From assembly GCA_021654635.1 (NCBI GenBank), contig AP025179.1, forward strand, positions 5,952,001-6,016,000: a stretch of 64,000 bases of DNA, given 5' to 3'. Numbering within the stretch: position 1 is the stretch's first letter; every line of letters begins with the position of its first letter. The notes under the pieces were generated by a model. The model saw only the letters and a list, made by a program, of their open reading frames with translations. It did no database searches and was not told the origin of the DNA. The DNA comes from Mycobacterium kiyosense (lineage in GTDB: Bacteria; Actinomycetota; Actinomycetes; Mycobacteriales; Mycobacteriaceae). Shown in pieces: positions 19,733 through 39,158 of this stretch. The translations under genes and the position numbers were made by a program.

Positions 19733-19850
19733 GTCGCGCCCCTTCTGTTGAACGCTGTCGAATTGATCGAACGAGGTGTGAATACCCCACTGTTCGAAGC
19801 TCCAATCGCGAATTTTCGCGGCAGATTCTGCGAGGATCCGAGGCCGAGTT

Positions 19851-21192
19851 CTAGCTCGCCGCGCGCGGCCGGAACCGCACTCTGGTGCCGCGGCGCGGCG
19901 CCAGCATGATGGATCGCCGCACGATCCGCTCCGGCGCGGCGTCCACGGCGCTGAACTCGCCCTCGCGCAGCAGCACCTGCAGCACGGTGATCAGCTCACG
20001 CATCGAAAACGCCGCGCCCAGGCAGCGTTTGACGCCGCCGCCGAACGGTACCCAGGCGTAGCTCTGGGGTGCGGATCCCGAGAAAGCGCTCCGGCCGGAA
20101 CTCGAGCGGGCTCTGGTAGACGGCCGGGTTGCGGTTGATGGCGATGATGTGCACGACGATGCGCGTTCCGGCCGCGACCGTATATCCGCCGATCGGAAAG
20201 GGTTTCGCGGCAACCCGCGCTGTCAGCGGCGCCGGCGGACGCACCCGTAGCGTCTCGTCGATCACCGCGGTGGTGAACGCCTCGTCGCCGCTCAATGCCT
20301 CCTCGCGCACCCGCCGCAGCGCGTCGGGGTGATGCAGCAGCAGATCGAAGATCCAGGCCAGCGTGGTCGCGGTGGTCTCGTGACCGGCCAGCATCAGGGT
20401 GACCAGATCGTCGCGAATCTGGCTGTCCGACAACCCTTCTCCGTCTTCGCCGCGAGCGTTGACCAGCAGCGAGAGGATGTCGCGTCGCGATACCGGATCG
20501 GGGTCGCGGCGGCGCCGCGCGGCGATGAGCGGCAGCACGACGGCGTCGATTTCGCGGTTGGCCCGGGCGCGCGACGGCCACACCCGCAGGGTGCCGAGTC
20601 CGCGCAGCGCATAGCGAACCGTCAATTGCTCTGACACACCGAGGTTCAGCAGTCTTTCGAAGGGCTGCCCCAGCCGTCGTACTTCGTCGGGATCTTCGGC
20701 ACCGAAGGTCACCCGCACGATCACGTCGAGCATCAATGCCCTTGCCGCATGCAGCATTTCGAACGGGCGGTCGACGGGCCAGTCCCGCATCGCAGCCCGC
20801 GTGCACGCCTCGATGATCGGCACGTAGCCGTTGAGCGCGGTGCCGTGCAGCGGCGGCGTCAACAGTCGGCGACGCCGCAGGTGTTCGGGCTCCTCTTGCA
20901 CGAACATCGAGCCGGACCCGTAGATAGCGGCGGCCGGCCCCACCCCCTCGCCCCCGAGTAACACGTCGGTGGATGCGGTGAACACTTCCTTGGCCAGCGC
21001 CGGGTCCGAGACGATGGCGACGTCCCCCAAACTGAGGATCGGCATCGTCATGATCGGCCCGTACCGGCGGATCAGCCGCAACATTCGTCGCTCGCCACCC
21101 ACCAGGTAGGCGAGCGCGTAGGCGGCCGCGAAGAGGCTGCGCAGCCGGCGGGGAGCGGGTAACCCGGGTGGAGAAGCCGGCGGAGCTGCCAC
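19851..21192 (-). pseudogene. Cytochrome P450 (CYP137-like by position), frameshifted before the heme motif
   Basis: The N-terminal frame (21192 down to 19996) carries the I-helix LMLAGHETTATT, the ExxR motif ETLR and FRPERF. After RFLG it leaves frame. The heme-binding FGGGVKRCLGAAFS and C terminus are read in another frame ending at 19851. Removing one base from the CCC run at 20077-20079 joins them as RFLGSAPQSYAWVPFGGG, a normal P450 sequence. Position next to tRNA-Pro and cds1 suggests the CYP137 (Rv3685c) orthologue. Either a sequencing error or a recent inactivation: without repair the heme Cys is lost. GTG 21192 is the first usable start. Confidence 0.85.
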
Positions 21193-21253
21193 CCTCCCGA
21201 CCCAACACGGCCGGGCGGGTCAGGTCAACAACCGGCGGGCGTGCGGCGACCGA

Positions 21254-21553
21254 TCAGGCGCAGTCTGCGCAGATCTGGCGCCCGCCGCCGGAGACGCGCA
21301 GCCGGTTACGGTGCTGCACCAGGAAGCAGCACGAGCAGGTGAACTCGTCGGATCGCTGCGGAATCACCACCACCGACAGTTCCTCTCCGGACAGATCGGC
21401 GCCGGGCAGTTCGAAGAACGGAGATTCGTTGGGGTCATCGTCGATGACGGCGGTGGCCAGCTTCGGCAGCGGGCCCAGCTCGCGGAGGGCGCTTTTGTCT
21501 GCGGCGTCGGCCTCGGTCACCCGGCGGGCGTCGTAATCACTGACGGTCGGCAT
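21254..21553 (-). CDS. DUF4193 family zinc-ribbon-like protein
   Basis: A 99-residue acidic protein with the family core FELPGADLSGEELSVVVIP. Its C-terminal cysteine pairs (CSCC and CADC) look like a metal-binding knuckle. ATG 21553 has AAGGAA nine bases upstream, which sets the start inside a longer open frame (to 21589). The function is unknown. Confidence 0.85.
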   Translation of the reverse strand: MPTVSDYDARRVTEADAADKSALRELGPLPKLATAVIDDDPNESPFFELPGADLSGEELSVVVIPQRSDEFTCSCCFLVQHRNRLRVSGGGRQICADCA

Positions 21554-29903: not shown

Positions 29904-30545
29904 TCAGCGCACCTCGCGCGGGGTGCGCACCAACCGATCTAATCGGAACGCCGCGTCTTCGTCGTGGTCGCCGTTCCCGGCGATCTCGGCGACCACGAGT
30001 TCGGCGATGTTGCGCAACTTGACGTTTGATTCCTGCGACATCTTCACCAACCGTTCGAATGCCGCATCGGAGTCGATGCCGTACCTCAGCATCAGGATGC
30101 CCATCGCCTGGTTGATCACCGCGCGTCGGGAATCCACGGCCAGCAGCGCCTCGCTGAGGTGCTTTTGCAGGTCAGCGTCGTACTGCTCGGTGATGTCGAT
30201 GTAGTAACCGCCGATTCCGAGCAGCCGTCCATCCGGCCCCGGGAACCGGTCCCCGACCACCACCACGACGTGCGTTTCGCCGCGGGTGTCGACGATGCGG
30301 TGCCGGCTGCTGAATGCGGTGCCGTGCCGGCGTACCTGCTCGATCAGTTCGGCGACGCTCGGTTTGTCATCCGGGTGCTTATGTTTGAGCAGTAGTTGGG
30401 TGGTGGGCGTCACGCTGCGCGGTTCGTAACCGTGCATGCGGGCAACTTCTTCGGACCATTCCCACCGGTCTTCACGCGTCAGGTACCGGAAGCGCCCCAC
30501 CGGCGGCCACCGCCGGCCCCTCTTTCGCCGCGAATCTGCGCACAC
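29904..30545 (-). CDS. PAS-ANTAR antitermination regulator
   Basis: A 213-residue signalling protein. A PAS-like sensor (about 20-120) ends with GGYYIDITEQYDADLQ, and the ANTAR RNA-binding three-helix domain (about 135-190) has AVINQAMGILMLRYGIDSDAAFERL. ANTAR proteins bind paired hairpins to prevent termination; no such tandem hairpins were recognised next to it. The target is unknown. The GTG or later start is uncertain. Confidence 0.88.
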   Translation of the reverse strand: MCADSRRKRGRRWPPVGRFRYLTREDRWEWSEEVARMHGYEPRSVTPTTQLLLKHKHPDDKPSVAELIEQVRRHGTAFSSRHRIVDTRGETHVVVVVGDRFPGPDGRLLGIGGYYIDITEQYDADLQKHLSEALLAVDSRRAVINQAMGILMLRYGIDSDAAFERLVKMSQESNVKLRNIAELVVAEIAGNGDHDEDAAFRLDRLVRTPREVR

Positions 30546-33012: not shown

Positions 33013-33381
33013 TCACCGGTTGAGCTTGCCTTCACGCACGCCGGTCAACCCGTCCTCCAGCGTCGGATACAGCGGAAAGGTCTTGTCCAGGCCGGTTAGG
33101 TGAATCGGACGTCGGGTCGCCGGGCCGCGTGCCACCACGCCGAACTCGGCGCCGTCCCCGAGTTTCTCGTAGGTGGACGCCAGAATTTTCAGCCCTACCG
33201 AGCCCAGGAAGTCAACCCCGGACAGGTCGATGATCAGCGCACCCGGATTGTCGGCAATCACGCCGCCGATTGCCTCTTCCAGGGCCGGCGCGGTGACCAG
33301 GTCGATTTCGCCGCCGATGCTGAGCACCACTACCCCGTCATGGTCGGAGACCGTGGCGGTGATCGAATCAGGAGCTGACAA
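33013..33381 (-). CDS. rsfB: Anti-anti-sigma factor RsfB (Rv3687c orthologue)
   Basis: STAS-domain protein of 122 residues. In M. tuberculosis RsfB binds the anti-sigma factor UsfX/RsbW and so frees SigF. The phospho-acceptor is Ser61 in VDFLGSVGLKIL. TTG 33381 is chosen because AAAGGA lies upstream and the protein then begins SAPDSITA, as in M. tuberculosis; the open frame continues to 33474. It is divergent from rsbR, placing the SigF output directly beside the stressosome genes. Confidence 0.93.
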   Translation of the reverse strand: MSAPDSITATVSDHDGVVVLSIGGEIDLVTAPALEEAIGGVIADNPGALIIDLSGVDFLGSVGLKILASTYEKLGDGAEFGVVARGPATRRPIHLTGLDKTFPLYPTLEDGLTGVREGKLNR

Positions 33382-33550
33382 TGGCGATCCTTTGTCCGGG
33401 TCTTCGGTGTGCTGCCAGCCTAACGTGCGGCGCTTACCGCGAGAAGAAGAAGACCTCAACACGCCCGAGGTCACACCCCCAAGCTAGTCTCGCCATAGCG
33501 CGACCACTGGGTAGAGCTTTTCGCACGCGCCAGAGGGCTTGGAGGGACGG

Positions 33551-34436
33551 ATGTCCGATTCGCCGACAGATCTCAGCACCGCCAGTACCACGGCCGGCGT
33601 CTCCAGCGAGGGTTTGCTGCCCCAGCTGGTCCAGCATCTGCGTCGAAACCGGACCGCCCTGCGCGAGGAGTGGGCCCGCCGGATCACCGAGGCCGAACTG
33701 CTCACCGCGATGACCCCGGAGGAGATCTTCTCCGAGGCCACCGCCGTCTACGACAACTATGTCGAGGTGCTCGAGACTGGCAGCGTCGAAGCCCTGCAGG
33801 ACTATGCGCGCGATCTCTCTTGAGCGCATCATTCCCCGCGGCGTGGAAACCGACGAGGTGCTGGGCATCGTGCTGTTGCTGCGCGACGTGCTGGCGCGCT
33901 CGTTGTTCGAGAAATACCAGGCCGAGTTCGACATGCTCAACCGCGTCCTGGACGCCTACGAGCCGGCTGCCAACCGGATCGCCAACACCGTGGGCGTCAG
34001 CTTCGTCCAGGAACGCGAGCGCATCATCCGCCAGCAGCAGGAAGCGATCCGCGAGCTGTCCACGCCCGTGCTTCAGGTCCGCGAACAGCTGCTCATCCTG
34101 CCGATCATCGGTGTGCTGGACAGCCAGCGCGCCCGGCAGGTCACCGAGCAGCTGCTGCGCGCCATCCGCGCCAACCGCGCCAAGGTGGTGGTCATCGACA
34201 TCACCGGTGTGCCCACCATCGACTCGACGGTGGCCAACCACCTGGTACAGACGGTCGACGCGTCCGGGCTGATGGGTGCCAGTGTCATCATCACCGGACT
34301 GTCCTCGGAAATCGCCCTGACCTTGGTGACGATCGGTCTCGACCTGTCCAAGATGAACGCCGTCGGCGACTTGCAGGGCGGTATCGAGGAAGCCGAACGC
34401 CTGCTGGGTTACGAAGTCACCCGCACCGGCGAGTAA
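33551..34436 (+). CDS. RsbR-like stressosome protein, frameshifted near codon 90
   Basis: N-terminal sensor-type helical domain plus C-terminal STAS domain. ATG 33551 (GGAGG upstream) opens a frame ending at a TGA at 33821. The remainder (RGVETDEVLGIVLLLRDVL onward) continues in the next frame to 34436. Deleting one T at 33820-33821 gives ARDLSERIIPRGVE, the normal family sequence, for a protein of about 294 residues. STAS phospho-sites appear as TIDSTVANHL and ALTLVTIGLDL. Probably a read error, since the adjoining genes are intact. Confidence 0.85.
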
Positions 34437-34454
34437 CGGCCCCGAAAACAGCCC

Positions 34455-34844
34455 ATGCCAGTACCGATCTTGAAACAGGGCGCGATCCTGATCGCCACGG
34501 TGCAGGCCGCGCTGACCGACTCCGACACCGAGCGGCTGCGCGAAGACCTGATGGAACGGGTCAGCCGGTTCCGCGCGCAGGGCATTGTCGTCGACGTCAC
34601 CGCGATCGACGTGATGGATTCCTTTGCGGCGCGGTCGCTGCGCACCATCGCGCACATGACCCGGCTGCGCGGGGCCACCACCGTGATCGTCGGTCTGCAG
34701 CCGGAGGTGGCCTTTGCCATGGTGCAGCTCGGGCTGGCCTTCGACGACATGAGCACCGCGCTCGACCTCGAAGAAGGCATCGCGCTGCTGCACAAACGTC
34801 TGGGACTGAACAGATCGACGATCGGGCGCGACGGTGGCGGGTGA
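34455..34844 (+). CDS. RsbS-like stressosome scaffold (STAS protein)
   Basis: A 129-residue single STAS domain. In Bacillus RsbS co-assembles with RsbR and holds the kinase RsbT until Ser59 is phosphorylated. The equivalent is Ser56 in IDVMDSFAARSL. ATG 34455 lies 18 bases after rsbR; the 3' end overlaps rsbT by 11 bases. Confidence 0.92.
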   Translation: MPVPILKQGAILIATVQAALTDSDTERLREDLMERVSRFRAQGIVVDVTAIDVMDSFAARSLRTIAHMTRLRGATTVIVGLQPEVAFAMVQLGLAFDDMSTALDLEEGIALLHKRLGLNRSTIGRDGGG

Positions 34845-35244
34845 GACAGTGGTCGCCATCAACACCTCCGACGACATCGTCGCCGCCCGCAAAGCCGGGC
34901 ACCAACTGGCGCTCGATCTGGGTTTCTCGCTTACCGACGTCACCATGATCGCGACCGCGATCTCCGAAATAGCCCGCAACATCACCAGCTATGCCGGTCG
35001 CGGCCAGGTTCGGGTGGCGGTGGCCGAGCGGGAGGGCCGCAAGGCGCTGGTGGTGCGGGCCGAAGACGACGGCCCCGGCATCGCCGACATCGACCGCGCC
35101 ATGGAAGACGGCTACACCACCGGCCGTGGTCTGGGCATGGGCCTGCCCGGGGCCCGCCGGCTGATGGACCGGTTGATCGTGGAGTCCGCGCTGGGCCGCG
35201 GCACGGTCGTCGAAATGTGGAAATGGGTTCCGGCCCGTGGGTGA
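34834..35244 (+). CDS. RsbT-like serine kinase/switch protein
   Basis: GHKL-type ATPase of 136 residues. ATP-site boxes: N-box SEIARNITSYAG, G1 EDDGPGI, G2 GRGLGMGLPGARRLMD. It phosphorylates RsbS/RsbR on stress and then activates an RsbU-type phosphatase. GTG 34834 lies inside the end of rsbS and its stop lies inside the next gene, so the set is translationally coupled. Confidence 0.92.
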   Translation: MAGETVVAINTSDDIVAARKAGHQLALDLGFSLTDVTMIATAISEIARNITSYAGRGQVRVAVAEREGRKALVVRAEDDGPGIADIDRAMEDGYTTGRGLGMGLPGARRLMDRLIVESALGRGTVVEMWKWVPARG

Positions 35245-35905
35245 CCCAGTCCGATCCGCGGGCCGCTTCGGGCCCATCGAGTGGGCGATCGCGAGTCGCT
35301 CGCGTCCCGGGGAGCAGTACTGCGGCGATCAGGCGATCGCGGCGGCCATCGACGGCGACACCGACAGCCCCCCGAACCCGAGCCCGGTCGCGGCTCTGTT
35401 CGGCGTCATGGACGGCCTCGGCCACGGCCCGGACGCCGCCCGCGCCGCCGAAACCGCCGCCGAGGCTCTGGCCGGAGCCCGCGGCGAGCGACTCGAGGTG
35501 CTGATCGAGCTGTGCCACCGCGTGTTGGGCGGCACCCGCGGGGTCGCCATGACGCTGGCACGGATCGACTTTCAGACCGGCCAGATGAGCTGGACCGGCG
35601 TCGGCAACGTCAGCGCCCATCTGGTCGCCAAAACCGTCAGCGGTGTCCAGAGCCGCGCCAGCGCGCGCCTGGTCGGCGGCATCGTCGGCTATCGGATACC
35701 GGAAACCCGCCCCGCACAAGTGGTTTCGATTCGGACCGGGGACCTGCTGGTGATCACCAGCGACGGTATCGCCGACGATCACCTGGAGCACCTGGATTTC
35801 GCCGCGTCGGCCAAAGACATCGTCGAACAGATACTCACCAAGCACGCCAAGGAAACCGACGACGCCATGGTGCTGGCCGCCCGCCACCGGGGGATCACGA
35901 CATGA
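35237..35905 (+). CDS. RsbX-like PP2C phosphatase
   Basis: A 222-residue SpoIIE/PP2C-type phosphatase domain with GVMDGLGHGPDAA (metal Asp) and LVITSDGIADDH. In Bacillus RsbX resets the stressosome by dephosphorylating RsbR/RsbS. GTG 35237 overlaps the rsbT end; the stop overlaps the next gene's ATG at 35902. Confidence 0.9.
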   Translation: MGDPVRSAGRFGPIEWAIASRSRPGEQYCGDQAIAAAIDGDTDSPPNPSPVAALFGVMDGLGHGPDAARAAETAAEALAGARGERLEVLIELCHRVLGGTRGVAMTLARIDFQTGQMSWTGVGNVSAHLVAKTVSGVQSRASARLVGGIVGYRIPETRPAQVVSIRTGDLLVITSDGIADDHLEHLDFAASAKDIVEQILTKHAKETDDAMVLAARHRGITT

Positions 35906-38136
35906 GCGCGGCGGCGGATTTCCACACCCAGTACCGGGACACTCTGCGCAGCTACCTCGACACCCGCGACGAGAATTTGCTGGCCGCCGGGCACGAACTG
36001 GGGCGCCGGGCGCTGCAGGAACAGATCAGCATGCTCGGCATCGTGGAGAGCACATTCCGGCTGCTCAACGAGCTGTCCAAGACCGGCCCCGCCGACCGGG
36101 CCGCCGCCGTCGAGTTCCTGCTGCAGACGTTGGCCCCGCTCGATGTCGCGACCCGCGGATTCTTGGATGGCGCAAAGCGTTTCGCGCAGGAGCGCGCTCG
36201 TGCCGAAGACCTGGCCGACCGCGACAAGTTCCGCACCGCACTGGTCAACTCGCTGCAGGAGGGCTTCTTCGTCGCCGACCGCAACGGCGCGGTGATCGAG
36301 ATCAACAACGCCTTCGCCGAGATCCTCGGGTACGGCGCAGCGGGTCTGCCCTATCCGTGGCCGCAAGCCTGGCTGGTCGACACGGAGCGCACCTATCAGG
36401 AGCAACAGCGGCTGCGTACCGAGGGCAGCGCCGAGTACGAGATCCCGGTCCGGCACCGCGACGGGCGCCTGGCCTGGGCGGCGGTCAGCATCAACGCCGT
36501 CCGCGGCCCCGGCGACGAGGGCGATGTCTACGTGGGCACCGTCCGCGATGTCACCGCCGAACGCGCGTTCGCTGCACGGGAGAGCGCGGTGCTGCGCCTG
36601 GCCACCTCGGTAGCGGTGGCCAAGAGTGTGGCCGAGGTGCTCGCGATCACCCTCGACGAGTGCCGGGCCGCGGTGGACGTGCAGCGGGTGGTCGCGGTGA
36701 TGTGGCCGGCCGGCGAAGGCGAGCCAACCGTCCAGGTCGCCGGTGATCCGCCCGAATCAGGTTGGCGCACCATGGATCCCACGCTGCGGCAGACGTTCAT
36801 GGACGCCCGCCACCAGTTGCCGCTGACCGCGAAGACCGTCGAGTGGCCGGACATGCCCGGCAAGACCCGCGGCATGGTCGCCATGCTCTCGGGCACCGGG
36901 GACGTGGCGCTGTGGCTGGAGCTGGGCACGCCGCGCTGGGTCAGTGCCGAGGATCGGCTGCTGGTCACGGTCCTGATCGGTCACCTCAGTCTCGCCATCG
37001 GGCATGTCCGCCAGTTCGAGATCGCCCGCGAAACGTCACTGACGTTGCAGCGGGCGATGCAACCGCCGATGAAGCCGCCGCCGGGCTTCGCCGTTCGCTA
37101 CGAACCCGCGGTGCTGCCATTGGAGATCAGCGGCGACTGGTACGACGTGCAGCCCATCGATGAGCGTCGTATCGGCATCGTCGTCGGGGACTGCGTAGGG
37201 CGCGGTTTGCCGGCCGCCGCGATCATGGGGCAGCTGCGCAGCTCGTCGCGGGCGCTGCTGCTCACCGGCGCCCGACCGGCCGTCCTGCTCGAGCAACTCG
37301 ACGCGGCGGCATCCACCATCCCGGACGCCTACTGCACGACGGTGTTCCTGGCGATTCTGGACGTCGAATCCGGGGTGCTGGAATACAGCAACGCCGGCCA
37401 CATGCCGGCAGTACTGGTCCGAACACAACCGGGGCCCCAAACGGTGACCACCATGCTGACCGACGCCCGTTCGGTTCCACTTGCGGTGCGCCGCAACGAA
37501 ACTCGACCGCAGGCCGCCGAAGTTCTGGGGCCCGGTTCGACGCTGATGCTGTTCACCGACGGTTTGGTCGAGCGGCGACACGAGTCGATCGACGAGGGTC
37601 TGGCCCGGGTCGCGGACGTCCTGACGGATTCGGCGCACCTGCCGATCGACGCCGTCGCCGACGCCGTGCTCGAACAGCTGGCGCCGGAAGCCGGCTACGA
37701 CGACGACGTCGCGATGGTGGTGTATCGCCACCAGCTGCCGCCGCTGCGCATCGAAACCGAGGCGACGGCTGACCGATTGGCCGCGATACGGCGTCAGCTG
37801 ACGCCCTGGCTGGAAACGACGAACGTCTCCGAGGAGCAGGCCTCCGACATCGTGCTGGTGGTCTGCGAGGCGGCCACCAACTGTGTCGAGCACGCCTACG
37901 CCGGCCAGGACGCCGGGAAGATGCTGCTCGAGATGGAGGCCACCGACGGTGCGATCCACGCCCGTATCACCGACTTCGGCTCCTGGAAGACGCCGGCCGC
38001 CGACCCGGGCAACAGCGGCCGGGGCCTGGTGCTGATGCGGGCCATGAGCGAGTCGATGGATGTAGTGCAGGGACCGGACGGCACCACCGTGGACATCGTC
38101 TTCCGTTTGCCCGGCCCGCAGACGGGTAAAGCATGA
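35902..38136 (+). CDS. Multidomain RsbU-type phosphatase fused to an RsbW-like ATPase
   Basis: A 744-residue signalling protein. An N-terminal helical domain (about 1-100, RsbU/RsbR-like) is followed by a PAS sensor (about 110-230, FFVADRNGAVIEIN), a GAF-like region (about 240-375), a PP2C phosphatase (about 395-605, ISGDWYDV, VVGDCVGRGLPAA, LFTDGLVERR) and a GHKL ATPase (about 615-740, VCEAATNCVEHAYAG, GRGLVLMRAMSE). Presumed to be switched on by RsbT and to dephosphorylate a STAS antagonist, with RsfB the obvious nearby candidate. ATG 35902 is in an ATGA overlap. Confidence 0.92.
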   Translation: MSAAADFHTQYRDTLRSYLDTRDENLLAAGHELGRRALQEQISMLGIVESTFRLLNELSKTGPADRAAAVEFLLQTLAPLDVATRGFLDGAKRFAQERARAEDLADRDKFRTALVNSLQEGFFVADRNGAVIEINNAFAEILGYGAAGLPYPWPQAWLVDTERTYQEQQRLRTEGSAEYEIPVRHRDGRLAWAAVSINAVRGPGDEGDVYVGTVRDVTAERAFAARESAVLRLATSVAVAKSVAEVLAITLDECRAAVDVQRVVAVMWPAGEGEPTVQVAGDPPESGWRTMDPTLRQTFMDARHQLPLTAKTVEWPDMPGKTRGMVAMLSGTGDVALWLELGTPRWVSAEDRLLVTVLIGHLSLAIGHVRQFEIARETSLTLQRAMQPPMKPPPGFAVRYEPAVLPLEISGDWYDVQPIDERRIGIVVGDCVGRGLPAAAIMGQLRSSSRALLLTGARPAVLLEQLDAAASTIPDAYCTTVFLAILDVESGVLEYSNAGHMPAVLVRTQPGPQTVTTMLTDARSVPLAVRRNETRPQAAEVLGPGSTLMLFTDGLVERRHESIDEGLARVADVLTDSAHLPIDAVADAVLEQLAPEAGYDDDVAMVVYRHQLPPLRIETEATADRLAAIRRQLTPWLETTNVSEEQASDIVLVVCEAATNCVEHAYAGQDAGKMLLEMEATDGAIHARITDFGSWKTPAADPGNSGRGLVLMRAMSESMDVVQGPDGTTVDIVFRLPGPQTGKA

Positions 38137-39158
38137 GTGTGAATCCCACGTCGATCGCCGTCGAACCCGCCCTGCCGGCGGCGCACGGTCCGTTGTCGAC
38201 GACGGTGCGCCGCACTCTGACCGCACCGGCCGCCCGCGAGCAGTCCGGCCGGATCAGCGCCGCGGTGCGCGACGCCGACCCCTACGGCCTGGACCTGCAG
38301 CTGGCCTTATATATGTGCTACGAGCTGCACTACCGGGGCTTCGCCTCGGTTGATCCGGACTGGGAGTGGAACCCCACCTTGCTGGCATTTCGTGCCGAGC
38401 TGGAGCGGGCATTCCTGGCCGGCGTGCGCCGCGACGTGGGTCCGATCGAACCCGGGCACACCGCGGCGGCCGAGATGGACGCGATCGCCGTGGAACCGAA
38501 AGACGGCAGCGGACCCTCCTACTTCCTCCGTGACCACGGCACCTGGGAGCAGATGCGCGAGTACTTCGTGCACCGCTCGCTGTATCACCTGAAAGAGGCG
38601 GATCCGCACGCATTTGCCATCCCCCGGCTGACCGGTACCGCCAAGGCGGCTTTCGTGGCCGTCGAGTTCGACGAGTACGGGGCCGGGCAGGGCAGGCGGA
38701 TGCACCAGCAGCTGTTCGCGGACCTGATGGATGCCGCCGACCTGGATTCGACGTATCTGCGCTACCTGGACGTGGTGCCCGCCGAAACGCTGGCGGCGGT
38801 GAACTTGATGTCACTGTTCGGCCTGCACAGAAAGCTGCGCGGCGCGGCCGTTGGGCATTTCGCTTCCACCGAGATCACCTCACCGCCGGGCTCACGGCGG
38901 ATGGTGCAGGCGCTGCAGCGGATGCAGGCCCCCGAGGCGTGCGTCGAGTTCTACCGCGAGCACGTGGAGGCCGACGCGGTACACGAACACGTGGTACGCC
39001 GAGACGTGGTGGGCGATCTGGTGACGCGCGAACCGCAGTTGGACGGCGACATCGTGTTCGGCATTCGGGCGCACGCCCTGGTGGAGGATCGGTTGGCCGA
39101 CGTGCTGATGGCCGCGTGGGCGCGCGGCGAAAGTTCGCTGCGGCGTCCGCTCAGCTGA
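38133..39158 (+). CDS. Iron-containing redox enzyme family protein (heme-oxygenase-like fold)
   Basis: A 341-residue all-helical protein of the heme-oxygenase-like diiron/iron oxidase superfamily. Candidate metal ligands occur in EQMREYFVHRSLYHLKEADPH, here EYFVHRSLYHLKE, and in VEFDEYGAGQGRRMHQQLF, the paired Glu/His pattern of this group. Members cleave fatty acids or amino acids or fragment small metabolites; the substrate is unknown. ATGA overlap with the RsbU-type gene makes it the last gene of the stressosome operon. It overlaps the convergent CDGSH gene by 8 bases. Confidence 0.85.
   Translation: MSVNPTSIAVEPALPAAHGPLSTTVRRTLTAPAAREQSGRISAAVRDADPYGLDLQLALYMCYELHYRGFASVDPDWEWNPTLLAFRAELERAFLAGVRRDVGPIEPGHTAAAEMDAIAVEPKDGSGPSYFLRDHGTWEQMREYFVHRSLYHLKEADPHAFAIPRLTGTAKAAFVAVEFDEYGAGQGRRMHQQLFADLMDAADLDSTYLRYLDVVPAETLAAVNLMSLFGLHRKLRGAAVGHFASTEITSPPGSRRMVQALQRMQAPEACVEFYREHVEADAVHEHVVRRDVVGDLVTREPQLDGDIVFGIRAHALVEDRLADVLMAAWARGESSLRRPLS

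What the first reader, a model, noticed from the sequence alone, without database searches (positions are those of the whole stretch)
33013..38136. Complete stressosome module placed back-to-back with the SigF antagonist rsfB
Seen: RsbR, RsbS, RsbT and RsbX homologues and a multidomain RsbU-type phosphatase, all overlapping, are divergent from rsfB. No sigma or anti-sigma gene is in the cluster. Known: in Bacillus the stressosome releases RsbT to activate RsbU, which dephosphorylates the STAS antagonist of the anti-sigma factor; in M. tuberculosis RsfB antagonises the SigF anti-sigma factor. Inference: here the stressosome output is dephosphorylation of RsfB Ser61, giving a sensory input to SigF that M. 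tuberculosis has lost while keeping rsfB.
Basis: partly seen in the sequence, partly recalled or inferred. Interest (0 to 1): 0.85.

Follow-up and report, generated by a model that had tools for sequence, protein, structure and literature searches.

The report
Mycobacterial stressosome wired to RsfB
This is the known mycobacterial version of a stress-sensing protein machine, here with its sensor gene split by a frame break, and comparison with relatives that have lost parts of it supports the idea that it controls the neighbouring gene rsfB and through that the stress factor SigF.

Summary
The cluster is real: rsfB divergent from rsbR-rsbS-rsbT-rsbX-rsbUW. It is not intact in this assembly: rsbR lies in two frames, broken near 33,820, while 78 of 80 relatives read through (assembly error or recent lesion). 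Mycobacterial stressosomes and a proposed route to SigF are published (PMC8115616).

What I add is comparative evidence on wiring. Of 248 Mycobacterium genomes, all 93 with RsbT carry rsfB divergent beside it. In 21 of 22 RsbT-less loci with an RsbUW orthologue, rsfB is divergent beside RsbUW (the exception is a decayed contig end). The RsbT-docking domain RsbU_N is in all 93 RsbT genomes. Of the 21 RsbT-less loci, 12 lack it and 8 have it weak, with dN/dS 2.2-4.6 times the rest of the protein in one clade. Six genomes, in four tree lineages, lack RsbR, RsbS and RsbX but keep RsbT and rsfB; RsbT stays constrained (dN/dS 0.08-0.18), RsbU_N only partly. Seventeen loci of six other genera hold the full cluster, 13 with an rsfB-like gene nearby, favouring repeated loss over late gain.

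RsfB is the likely output: inference, not biochemistry.

The parts
33013..33381 (-). rsfB: STAS anti-anti-sigma factor (RsbV type), 122 aa from TTG; phospho-acceptor Ser at residue 61
   Evidence: STAS E 3.4e-21; TTG codon before the 121-aa core and Ser at core position 60; TIGR00377 over cut-off
33551..33823 (+). rsbR, N-terminal piece (residues 1-90); its frame ends in a stop here
   Evidence: 87-90% identical to L009, L010, L012, L013, L015 and L016 over residues 1-90
33822..34436 (+). rsbR, C-terminal piece in another frame (204 residues, STAS domain; open from ATG 33759). Phospho-sites: Ser at the position of Thr171, and Thr205 (site names of B. subtilis recalled)
   Evidence: both residues invariant in 101 of 101; dN 0.000, dS 0.462 against L016
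34455..34844 (+). rsbS: STAS stressosome scaffold, phospho-Ser at residue 56
   Evidence: PDB RsbS 6qcm 1.2e-25, collinear; Ser 101 of 101
34834..35244 (+). rsbT: switch kinase (GHKL ATPase)
   Evidence: HATPase_c 2.7e-11; SpoIIAB 1til 4.5e-7; E45, N49, G80, G99, G101, G103 invariant in 101 of 101
35237..35905 (+). rsbX: single-domain PP2C feedback phosphatase
   Evidence: SpoIIE 3.7e-11
35902..38136 (+). rsbUW: RsbU_N - PAS - (unassigned stretch) - SpoIIE phosphatase - HATPase_c_2 (RsbW-like) fusion, 744 aa; proposed RsbT-activated phosphatase (and perhaps kinase) for RsfB
   Evidence: Pfam; Rv1364c structure 3ke6 5.2e-45 over the phosphatase-kinase part
38133..39158 (+). haem-oxygenase-like protein overlapping the end of rsbUW by 4 bp; probable operon member, role unknown
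   Evidence: PF14518 2.2e-58; found (over 150 bits) in 72 of 79 RsbUW-bearing relative loci, in some of them more than 1 kb away

Best explanation
This is a member of the published mycobacterial stressosome (rsbRSTX-rsbUW), most likely acting on the divergently encoded RsfB. Unstressed, RsbR/RsbS hold RsbT. On stress RsbT phosphorylates RsbS/RsbR and is released, binds the RsbU_N domain of RsbUW and switches on its PP2C domain, which dephosphorylates RsfB Ser61. Free RsfB then takes the anti-sigma factor RsbW/UsfX off SigF. RsbX resets RsbR/RsbS, and the HATPase domain of RsbUW (or another RsbW) re-phosphorylates RsfB. Shown by sequence: the parts, catalytic and phospho-residues, linkage to rsfB, loss of RsbU_N where RsbT is gone, and joint absence of RsbR, RsbS and RsbX. 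Inferred: every biochemical step here. In this assembly rsbR is frame-broken, so the sensor is either misread or newly lost.
For: Linkage: rsfB divergent and under 3 kb from rsbT in 93 of 93 RsbT genomes out of 248; RsbUW is on the same strand downstream of rsbT in all 91 genomes where both are on one contig (92 have both, one on another contig). Without RsbT, rsfB is divergent beside RsbUW in 21 of 22 loci. In other genera an rsfB-like gene is near in 13 of 17 loci, 10 of them downstream on the same strand. RsbT acts through RsbU_N: RsbU_N is in all 93 RsbT genomes (50.6-85.4 bits); the ten RsbU_N-bearing genomes without RsbT score 26.4-64.2 (median 43.1); 12 of 21 RsbT-less RsbUW lack it. 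dN/dS of RsbU_N over that of the rest of RsbUW: 2.2-4.6 in five RsbT-less pairs, 0.6-1.5 in seven pairs with full stressosomes, 0.8-2.2 in six pairs that include RsbT-only genomes. RsbX goes with RsbR/RsbS: six RsbT-only genomes have no match to any of the three genome-wide, control genome G104 positive each time. Precedent: RsfR and RsbW2, coded near rsfB, dephosphorylate and phosphorylate RsfB in M. smegmatis (PMC10950880, PMC7693655; passages read); [quoted passage not shown] subtilis (PMC12143880; passages).
Against: No biochemical test. rsbR is broken here. The genome has many other partner-switching proteins, including other phosphatase-kinase fusions. Four of 17 other-genus loci show no rsfB-like gene within the fetched stretch. 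G088 (L169), a 3.2-Mb RsbT-less genome with a decayed RsbUW in pieces, shows no rsfB in the stretch before its contig end. G198 (L117) has no RsbT but a sound RsbU_N (64.2 bits), read as a recent loss; three L117 pairs give U_N 0.20-0.32 against 0.15-0.20. The five RsbT-less pairs lie in one clade, share branches, and align over only 69-80 codons; three pairs of that clade's RsbT-bearing member L149 with RsbT-less ones are also raised (0.23-0.42 against 0.12-0.21). RsbU_N is partly relaxed in RsbT-only pairs too (L131-L132: 0.39 against 0.18). Strict SigF-type promoter pattern in the rsfB-rsbR gap: 0 of 81 loci, so no sign of feedback on the operon.
Confidence: 0.72

Rival explanations
1. The stressosome of this strain is dead or stuck: rsbR carries a true, recent frameshift, so RsbT is poorly held and the RsfB/SigF route is constitutively on or rewired, a first step towards the RsbT-only state seen in relatives.
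For: rsbR is in two frames; no second RsbR match in the genome. Two of 80 relatives are also broken in the same part of rsbR: L073 between residues 81 and 91, L025 between residues 90 and 116. RsbR/RsbS presence needs 7 changes on the rooted RsbUW tree.
Against: The C-terminal piece has dN 0.000-0.002 against dS 0.46-0.56 to four relatives. A second conserved gene in the window, a P450, is frame-broken near 20,080 when compared with G006, and completeness is 98.51 against 99-100 (rounded) for the other single-contig RsbT genomes listed, as expected if indel errors remain.
Confidence: 0.35
2. The rsbR break is a sequencing or assembly error and the operon is intact in the living strain.
For: Strong conservation of the piece behind the break; second break in the window; 78 of 80 relatives continuous.
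Against: Not a long homopolymer; two relatives are also broken in this stretch.
Confidence: 0.6
3. RsbUW is the stressosome output but its main substrate is another STAS protein, and rsfB is a neighbour by descent.
For: 18 STAS matches in the genome; 4 of 17 other-genus loci without an rsfB-like neighbour.
Against: Linkage persists in different arrangements and where the stressosome is absent.
Confidence: 0.15
4. RsbUW mainly phosphorylates RsfB through its HATPase domain, so stressosome output would turn SigF down.
For: The HATPase_c_2 domain is kept in RsbUW with and without RsbT; M. smegmatis uses an RsbW-type kinase coded in an operon with rsfB.
Against: RsbT activates the phosphatase of RsbU in B. 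subtilis; the SpoIIE domain scores strongly.
Confidence: 0.1

Closest known systems
Mycobacterium marinum stressosome (rsbV, rsbRSTX, rsbUW; PMC8115616; the earlier work cited there as ref. 22 was not seen)
   Same: Same gene set; the authors propose RsbRST, RsbUW, RsbUVW and RsbV as the pathway to RsbW and SigF; present in slow growers with named exceptions, the M. tuberculosis complex among those lacking it (sections 3, 5, 10 read).
   Different: Here rsbR is frame-broken. Full clusters in 17 loci of six other genera and RsbT-only loci favour old presence with repeated loss over the later acquisition proposed there. The main text does not use the name RsfB (0 occurrences).
Bacillus subtilis RsbRSTUVW-SigB-RsbX
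   Same: RsbR/RsbS STAS core, RsbT kinase, RsbX, RsbU_N-bearing phosphatase, STAS antagonist (B. subtilis order from PMC9237108 passages).
   Different: No sigma or stand-alone anti-sigma gene in the cluster; the phosphatase carries a PAS domain and an RsbW-like domain; RsbX follows RsbT directly.
RsfSR - RsbW2 - RsfB of M. smegmatis (PMC10950880, PMC7693655; passages)
   Same: Phosphatase and kinase coded near rsfB set its phosphorylation and so SigF activity (shown there).
   Different: Two-component input instead of a stressosome. In 7 of 21 RsbT-less RsbUW loci an RsfSR-like pair flanks rsfB on the other side (in one, L140, only part is visible at a contig end).
Rv1364c (PDB 3ke6)
   Same: SpoIIE and HATPase parts align, 5.2e-45; PAS, PP2C and kinase order as described in PMC10950880.
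   Different: Rv1364c also has a STAS domain; Pfam finds none in RsbUW, which has RsbU_N.

Membership tests
Stressosome (RsbRST core with RsbX) | RsbR with C-terminal STAS and its two phospho-sites | tested here: inconclusive
   STAS piece and both sites present but rsbR is in two frames
Stressosome (RsbRST core with RsbX) | RsbS with phospho-serine | tested here: met
   collinear with 6qcm RsbS; Ser 101 of 101
Stressosome (RsbRST core with RsbX) | RsbT with ATP-binding motifs | tested here: met
Stressosome (RsbRST core with RsbX) | RsbX single-domain PP2C | tested here: met
Stressosome (RsbRST core with RsbX) | Assembly into a megadalton RsbR-RsbS-RsbT particle | not testable with these tools
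   needs purified proteins
RsbU-type RsbT-activated phosphatase | RsbU_N domain plus PP2C domain | tested here: met
   RsbU_N 4.1e-17, SpoIIE 6.7e-40
RsbU-type RsbT-activated phosphatase | Binding of and activation by RsbT | not testable with these tools
   indirect only: RsbU_N presence and conservation follow RsbT
RsfB (SigF anti-anti-sigma factor) | STAS domain with Ser at residue 61 | tested here: met
   Ser 133 of 133
RsfB (SigF anti-anti-sigma factor) | Binds the SigF anti-sigma factor when unphosphorylated | not testable with these tools
   shown for M. smegmatis RsfB in PMC7693655 (passages)

The most novel reading that the evidence does not exclude
Some mycobacteria run a stressosome-free RsbT circuit. 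RsbR, RsbS and RsbX are gone in four tree lineages while RsbT, an RsbU_N-bearing RsbUW and divergent rsfB are kept, RsbT with dN/dS of 0.08-0.18, so RsbT has become a standing subunit or expression-set activator of RsbUW and sensing has moved to the PAS part of RsbUW or to other inputs. rsfB is a hub onto which stressosome and two-component inputs are plugged and unplugged, and the window's broken rsbR may be the first step of the same decay.
Probability: 0.5. Interest if true: 0.6.

Novelty: new member of a known kind. Interest (0 to 1): 0.45.

Why it matters
What the mycobacterial stressosome acts on, and how it evolved, was left open in the papers I saw. The genus offers a natural deletion series (full; RsbT-only; RsbUW with weak RsbU_N; RsbUW without it) in which rsfB stays linked. 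That makes the question 'does the stressosome act on RsfB and SigF' testable by a short list of assays, favours repeated loss over late gain, and points to RsbT working without a stressosome core, which I did not find described in seven searches.

Tried and rejected
Considered and dropped. (1) A programmed frameshift in rsbR: 78 of 80 relatives are continuous. (2) A second RsbR elsewhere in the genome: no match at E 1e-4 beyond rsbR and rsbS themselves. (3) A SigF-type promoter between rsfB and rsbR as a sign of feedback: strict pattern 0 of 81 on either strand; relaxed pattern 0 towards rsbR and 1 towards rsfB of 81, shuffled mean 1.6. (4) Late acquisition of the module within the genus: disfavoured by full clusters in 17 of 17 fetched loci of six other genera and an rsbR remnant in L135; horizontal transfer is not excluded.

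Errors and limits. In one search the rsbR N-terminal query was taken in a wrong frame; redone. In one search one RsbT column (79) was placed one residue off and is not used. The audit of frame breaks covered 54 query ORFs of G006 with a hit, 45 intact by its rule, five flagged; I judged two true (rsbR, P450) and three likely non-coding, antisense or gene-fusion effects, by eye. The RsfB row list was cut by the tool; I carried its best 119 rows into. Matches of 437-469 bits (40-44% identity, frames of about 1,400 aa) were taken as paralogues and left out of the RsbUW count. The loci L009-L088 and those from numbered genomes overlap, so counts of 101 and 133 include some genomes twice. The rooted tree used 77 rows: the RsbT-only and RsbT-less rows that were long enough, one in four of the full rows among L009-L088, the other full rows, and 15 of 17 outgroup loci (two too short). 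Three RsbUW fragments (L143, L169, L174) were left out of both trees. L130 sits on a long branch beside L144 and its RsbUW is fast-evolving, so 'four' RsbT-only lineages is three without it. The dN/dS pairs were picked by me from the tree and share branches. Structure prediction, the large protein search and the phage, plasmid, E. coli and viral collections were not used.
Full report
WHAT IS THERE. The window lies at 5,952,001-6,016,000 of a one-contig 6.35-Mb genome whose nearest named relatives by RsbT are M. asiaticum and M. gordonae strains (94-96% identity for the best five). Around 33-39 kb it codes rsfB on the minus strand and, divergently, rsbR, rsbS, rsbT, rsbX, a 744-residue RsbU_N-PAS-SpoIIE-HATPase protein (I take it to be the RsbUW of PMC8115616) and a haem-oxygenase-like protein. 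rsbS/rsbT, rsbT/rsbX, rsbX/rsbUW and rsbUW/haem-oxygenase-like overlap by a few bases; rsbR and rsbS are 18 bp apart. A SigB/F/G-family sigma gene (TIGR02980, 311.8 bits, over cut-off; I take it as sigF) with an HATPase_c_2 match just upstream is at 1.313 Mb.

THE rsbR BREAK. rsbR is not one gene in this assembly. Residues 1-90 end at a stop at 33821-33823, and the other 204 residues follow in another frame. Of 80 relatives fetched by RsbT, 78 have one continuous frame; L025 (M. genavense) and L073 do not, and both are broken in the same part of the gene, between residues 81 and 116. The downstream piece in the window has dN 0.000-0.002 against dS 0.46-0.56 to four relatives, so a break, if real, is recent. 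A P450 gene near 20,080 is also frame-broken against G006, and the genome's completeness is 98.51 against 99-100 (rounded) for the other single-contig RsbT genomes listed. I lean to an assembly error (0.6), without proof. No second RsbR match exists in the genome at E 1e-4.

RESIDUES. Ser61 of RsfB is invariant in 133 of 133 sequences. RsbS Ser56, RsbR Ser (at the Thr171 position) and Thr (at the Thr205 position), and six RsbT motif residues are invariant in 101 of 101 full loci, the window included (some genomes are in the set twice; B. subtilis site names recalled). RsbR's C-terminal piece and RsbS align with RsbR and RsbS chains of solved stressosomes (7b0u, 6qcm).

LINKAGE TO rsfB. In the 80 relatives, order and strands are as in the window in 80 of 80, one contig ending before RsbUW. 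In 248 Mycobacterium genomes (drawn by the tool, one per species), RsbT is in 93 (E 1e-25). In 93 of 93 an rsfB gene is divergent and under 3 kb upstream of rsbT: 87 at 1,429-1,545 bp and six at 249-422 bp. RsbUW orthologues (750 bits or more) are in 112 genomes: 92 with RsbT and 20 without. The ninety-third RsbT genome, G005, has RsbUW in parts on other contigs. With the partial G030, 21 RsbT-less RsbUW loci were examined; rsfB is divergent beside RsbUW in 21 of 21. A twenty-second, G088 (L169; 3.2 Mb, 92% complete), came up through RsbU_N alone. Its RsbUW is in pieces, an RsbX remnant and an intact haem-oxygenase-like gene remain, and no rsbT or rsfB is seen before the contig end. So rsfB and RsbUW form the lasting unit and the stressosome the optional part. 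The converse is not strict: in L118, L168, L171, L177 and L178 rsfB-like genes stand without RsbUW, and in L172 a contig edge hides the neighbour.

RsbU_N FOLLOWS RsbT. RsbU_N (PF08673) is found in 103 of 248 genomes, including all 93 with RsbT (50.6-85.4 bits, median 68.6). The ten without RsbT score 26.4-64.2 (median 43.1; Mann-Whitney 9e-7, not corrected for relatedness). Of the 21 RsbT-less RsbUW loci, 12 start after RsbU_N altogether and have no RsbU_N match in their genomes, 8 have it below the lowest RsbT-bearing score, and one (L117) is sound. dN/dS of RsbU_N against the rest of RsbUW: five RsbT-less pairs of one clade, 0.36-0.82 against 0.10-0.20 (ratios 2.2-4.6); seven pairs with full stressosomes, 0.09-0.21 against 0.07-0.24 (0.6-1.5); six pairs including RsbT-only genomes, 0.12-0.44 against 0.14-0.51 (0.8-2.2). 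Pairs of L149 (RsbT present, same clade as the RsbT-less ones) with RsbT-less rows: 0.23-0.42 against 0.12-0.21; pairs of L117: 0.20-0.32 against 0.15-0.20. The pairs share branches and RsbU_N gives only 62-85 codons, so this is indicative.

RsbT WITHOUT A STRESSOSOME. Six genomes (G182, G207, G231, G124, G067, G169; L130-L135) have rsfB, then rsbT, then RsbUW 10-81 bp downstream. Searches of the six whole genomes with RsbS, the RsbR C-terminal piece and RsbX found none at E 1e-4; control genome G104 was positive each time. Four of the six are single-contig assemblies. L135 keeps a short rsbR N-terminal remnant between rsfB and rsbT. Their RsbT keeps the N-box and glycine motifs. RsbT dN/dS is 0.13-0.18 within the L131/L132/L134 clade, 0.08-0.13 in four comparisons with L133 or L135, and 0.17 for L130-L144. 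That is purifying selection, but looser than the 0.02-0.06 of seven full-full comparisons. RsbU_N is held in some pairs (0.14 for L131-L134) and partly relaxed in others (0.39 for L131-L132). rsfB gives 0.06-0.23, and 0.44 for L130-L144, whose RsbUW is fast-evolving throughout. On the RsbUW trees the six need four changes; L130 is on a long branch. In B. subtilis, overexpressing rsbT beyond the capacity of the stressosome switches SigB on (PMC12143880 passage), so a free RsbT should keep RsbUW active. That is inference.

DIRECTION OF CHANGE. In the family, RsbT (E 1e-15) is in 75 of 401 genomes and 7 of 31 genera. [quoted passage not shown] An rsfB-like STAS gene (44-48% identity to the window's RsfB or to L142's) is near in 13: ten downstream on the same strand, one downstream on the other strand, two upstream and divergent; four show none within the fetched stretch. 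Rooted on 15 of these, the RsbUW tree needs 7 changes for RsbR/RsbS and 4 for RsbT. Repeated loss from an old full cluster is the simpler reading; PMC8115616 instead proposes gain after most slow growers diverged from fast growers. A regain is possible for L149.

A SWITCHABLE INPUT. In 7 of the 21 RsbT-less loci a receiver-PP2C protein and a CHASE3 histidine kinase (Pfam for L142), the domain make-up of M. smegmatis RsfR/RsfS, flank rsfB on its other side (in L140 only part of the first is seen, at a contig end). L149 has both this pair and the full stressosome, in a genome listed as 7% contaminated but on one contig. None of L009-L088 nor the window showed the pair within the fetched stretch. 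Since RsfR and RsbW2 act on RsfB in M. smegmatis (PMC10950880, PMC7693655; passages), enzymes coded near rsfB acting on it has an experimental precedent.

WHAT IS KNOWN. PMC8115616 (abstract, sections 3, 5, 10 and passages read) describes these genes, their interactions and localisation in M. marinum, their distribution over 244 genomes and the proposed route to SigF. PMC9237108 (passages) describes rsbRSTX modules with varied outputs. I found no report of RsbT-only loci or of RsbU_N decay in seven searches of an open-access library, judged from listings and the passages named here. The supplements of PMC8115616 could not be read, so this is weak.

VERDICT. The finding is a correct sighting of a known system, over-stated as complete and as new. 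Its inference about RsfB is well supported by comparative evidence but unproven.

Noticed in passing
window 19,850-21,290 (-): A cytochrome P450-like gene is frame-broken near 20,080: the conserved C-terminal stretch lies in another frame than the rest, unlike in G006 (L159).
   Followed up: partly
rsbR in the window, L025 and L073: Three of 81 rsbR genes are frame-broken, all between residues 81 and 116; the remnant in L135 also ends near residue 87. Possible mutational or sequencing weak spot. In L025 the rsbS match is partial too.
   Followed up: partly
window 38133-39158: A haem-oxygenase-like (PF14518) gene overlaps rsbUW by 4 bp and is present in 72 of 79 relative loci; possible sensor, effector or unrelated operon member.
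   Followed up: no
L149 (G111): One contig carries both a full stressosome-RsbUW cluster and an RsfSR-like two-component pair on the two sides of the same rsfB.
   Followed up: partly
L169 (G088): A 3.2-Mb genome with a decayed stressosome locus: RsbX remnant, RsbUW in pieces, intact haem-oxygenase-like gene.
   Followed up: partly
L216 7304-7660 and L218 7273-7620: In two other-genus loci an RsbW-like HATPase match lies just upstream of rsbR, perhaps a stand-alone kinase.
   Followed up: no
window 29904-30545 (-): A PAS-ANTAR protein (putative RNA-binding antiterminator) about 2.5 kb beyond rsfB.
   Followed up: no
G000:C1 near 775, 1506, 2280 and 4246 kb: Four further SpoIIE-HATPase fusion frames, three of them followed by STAS matches: a large partner-switching network.
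   Followed up: no
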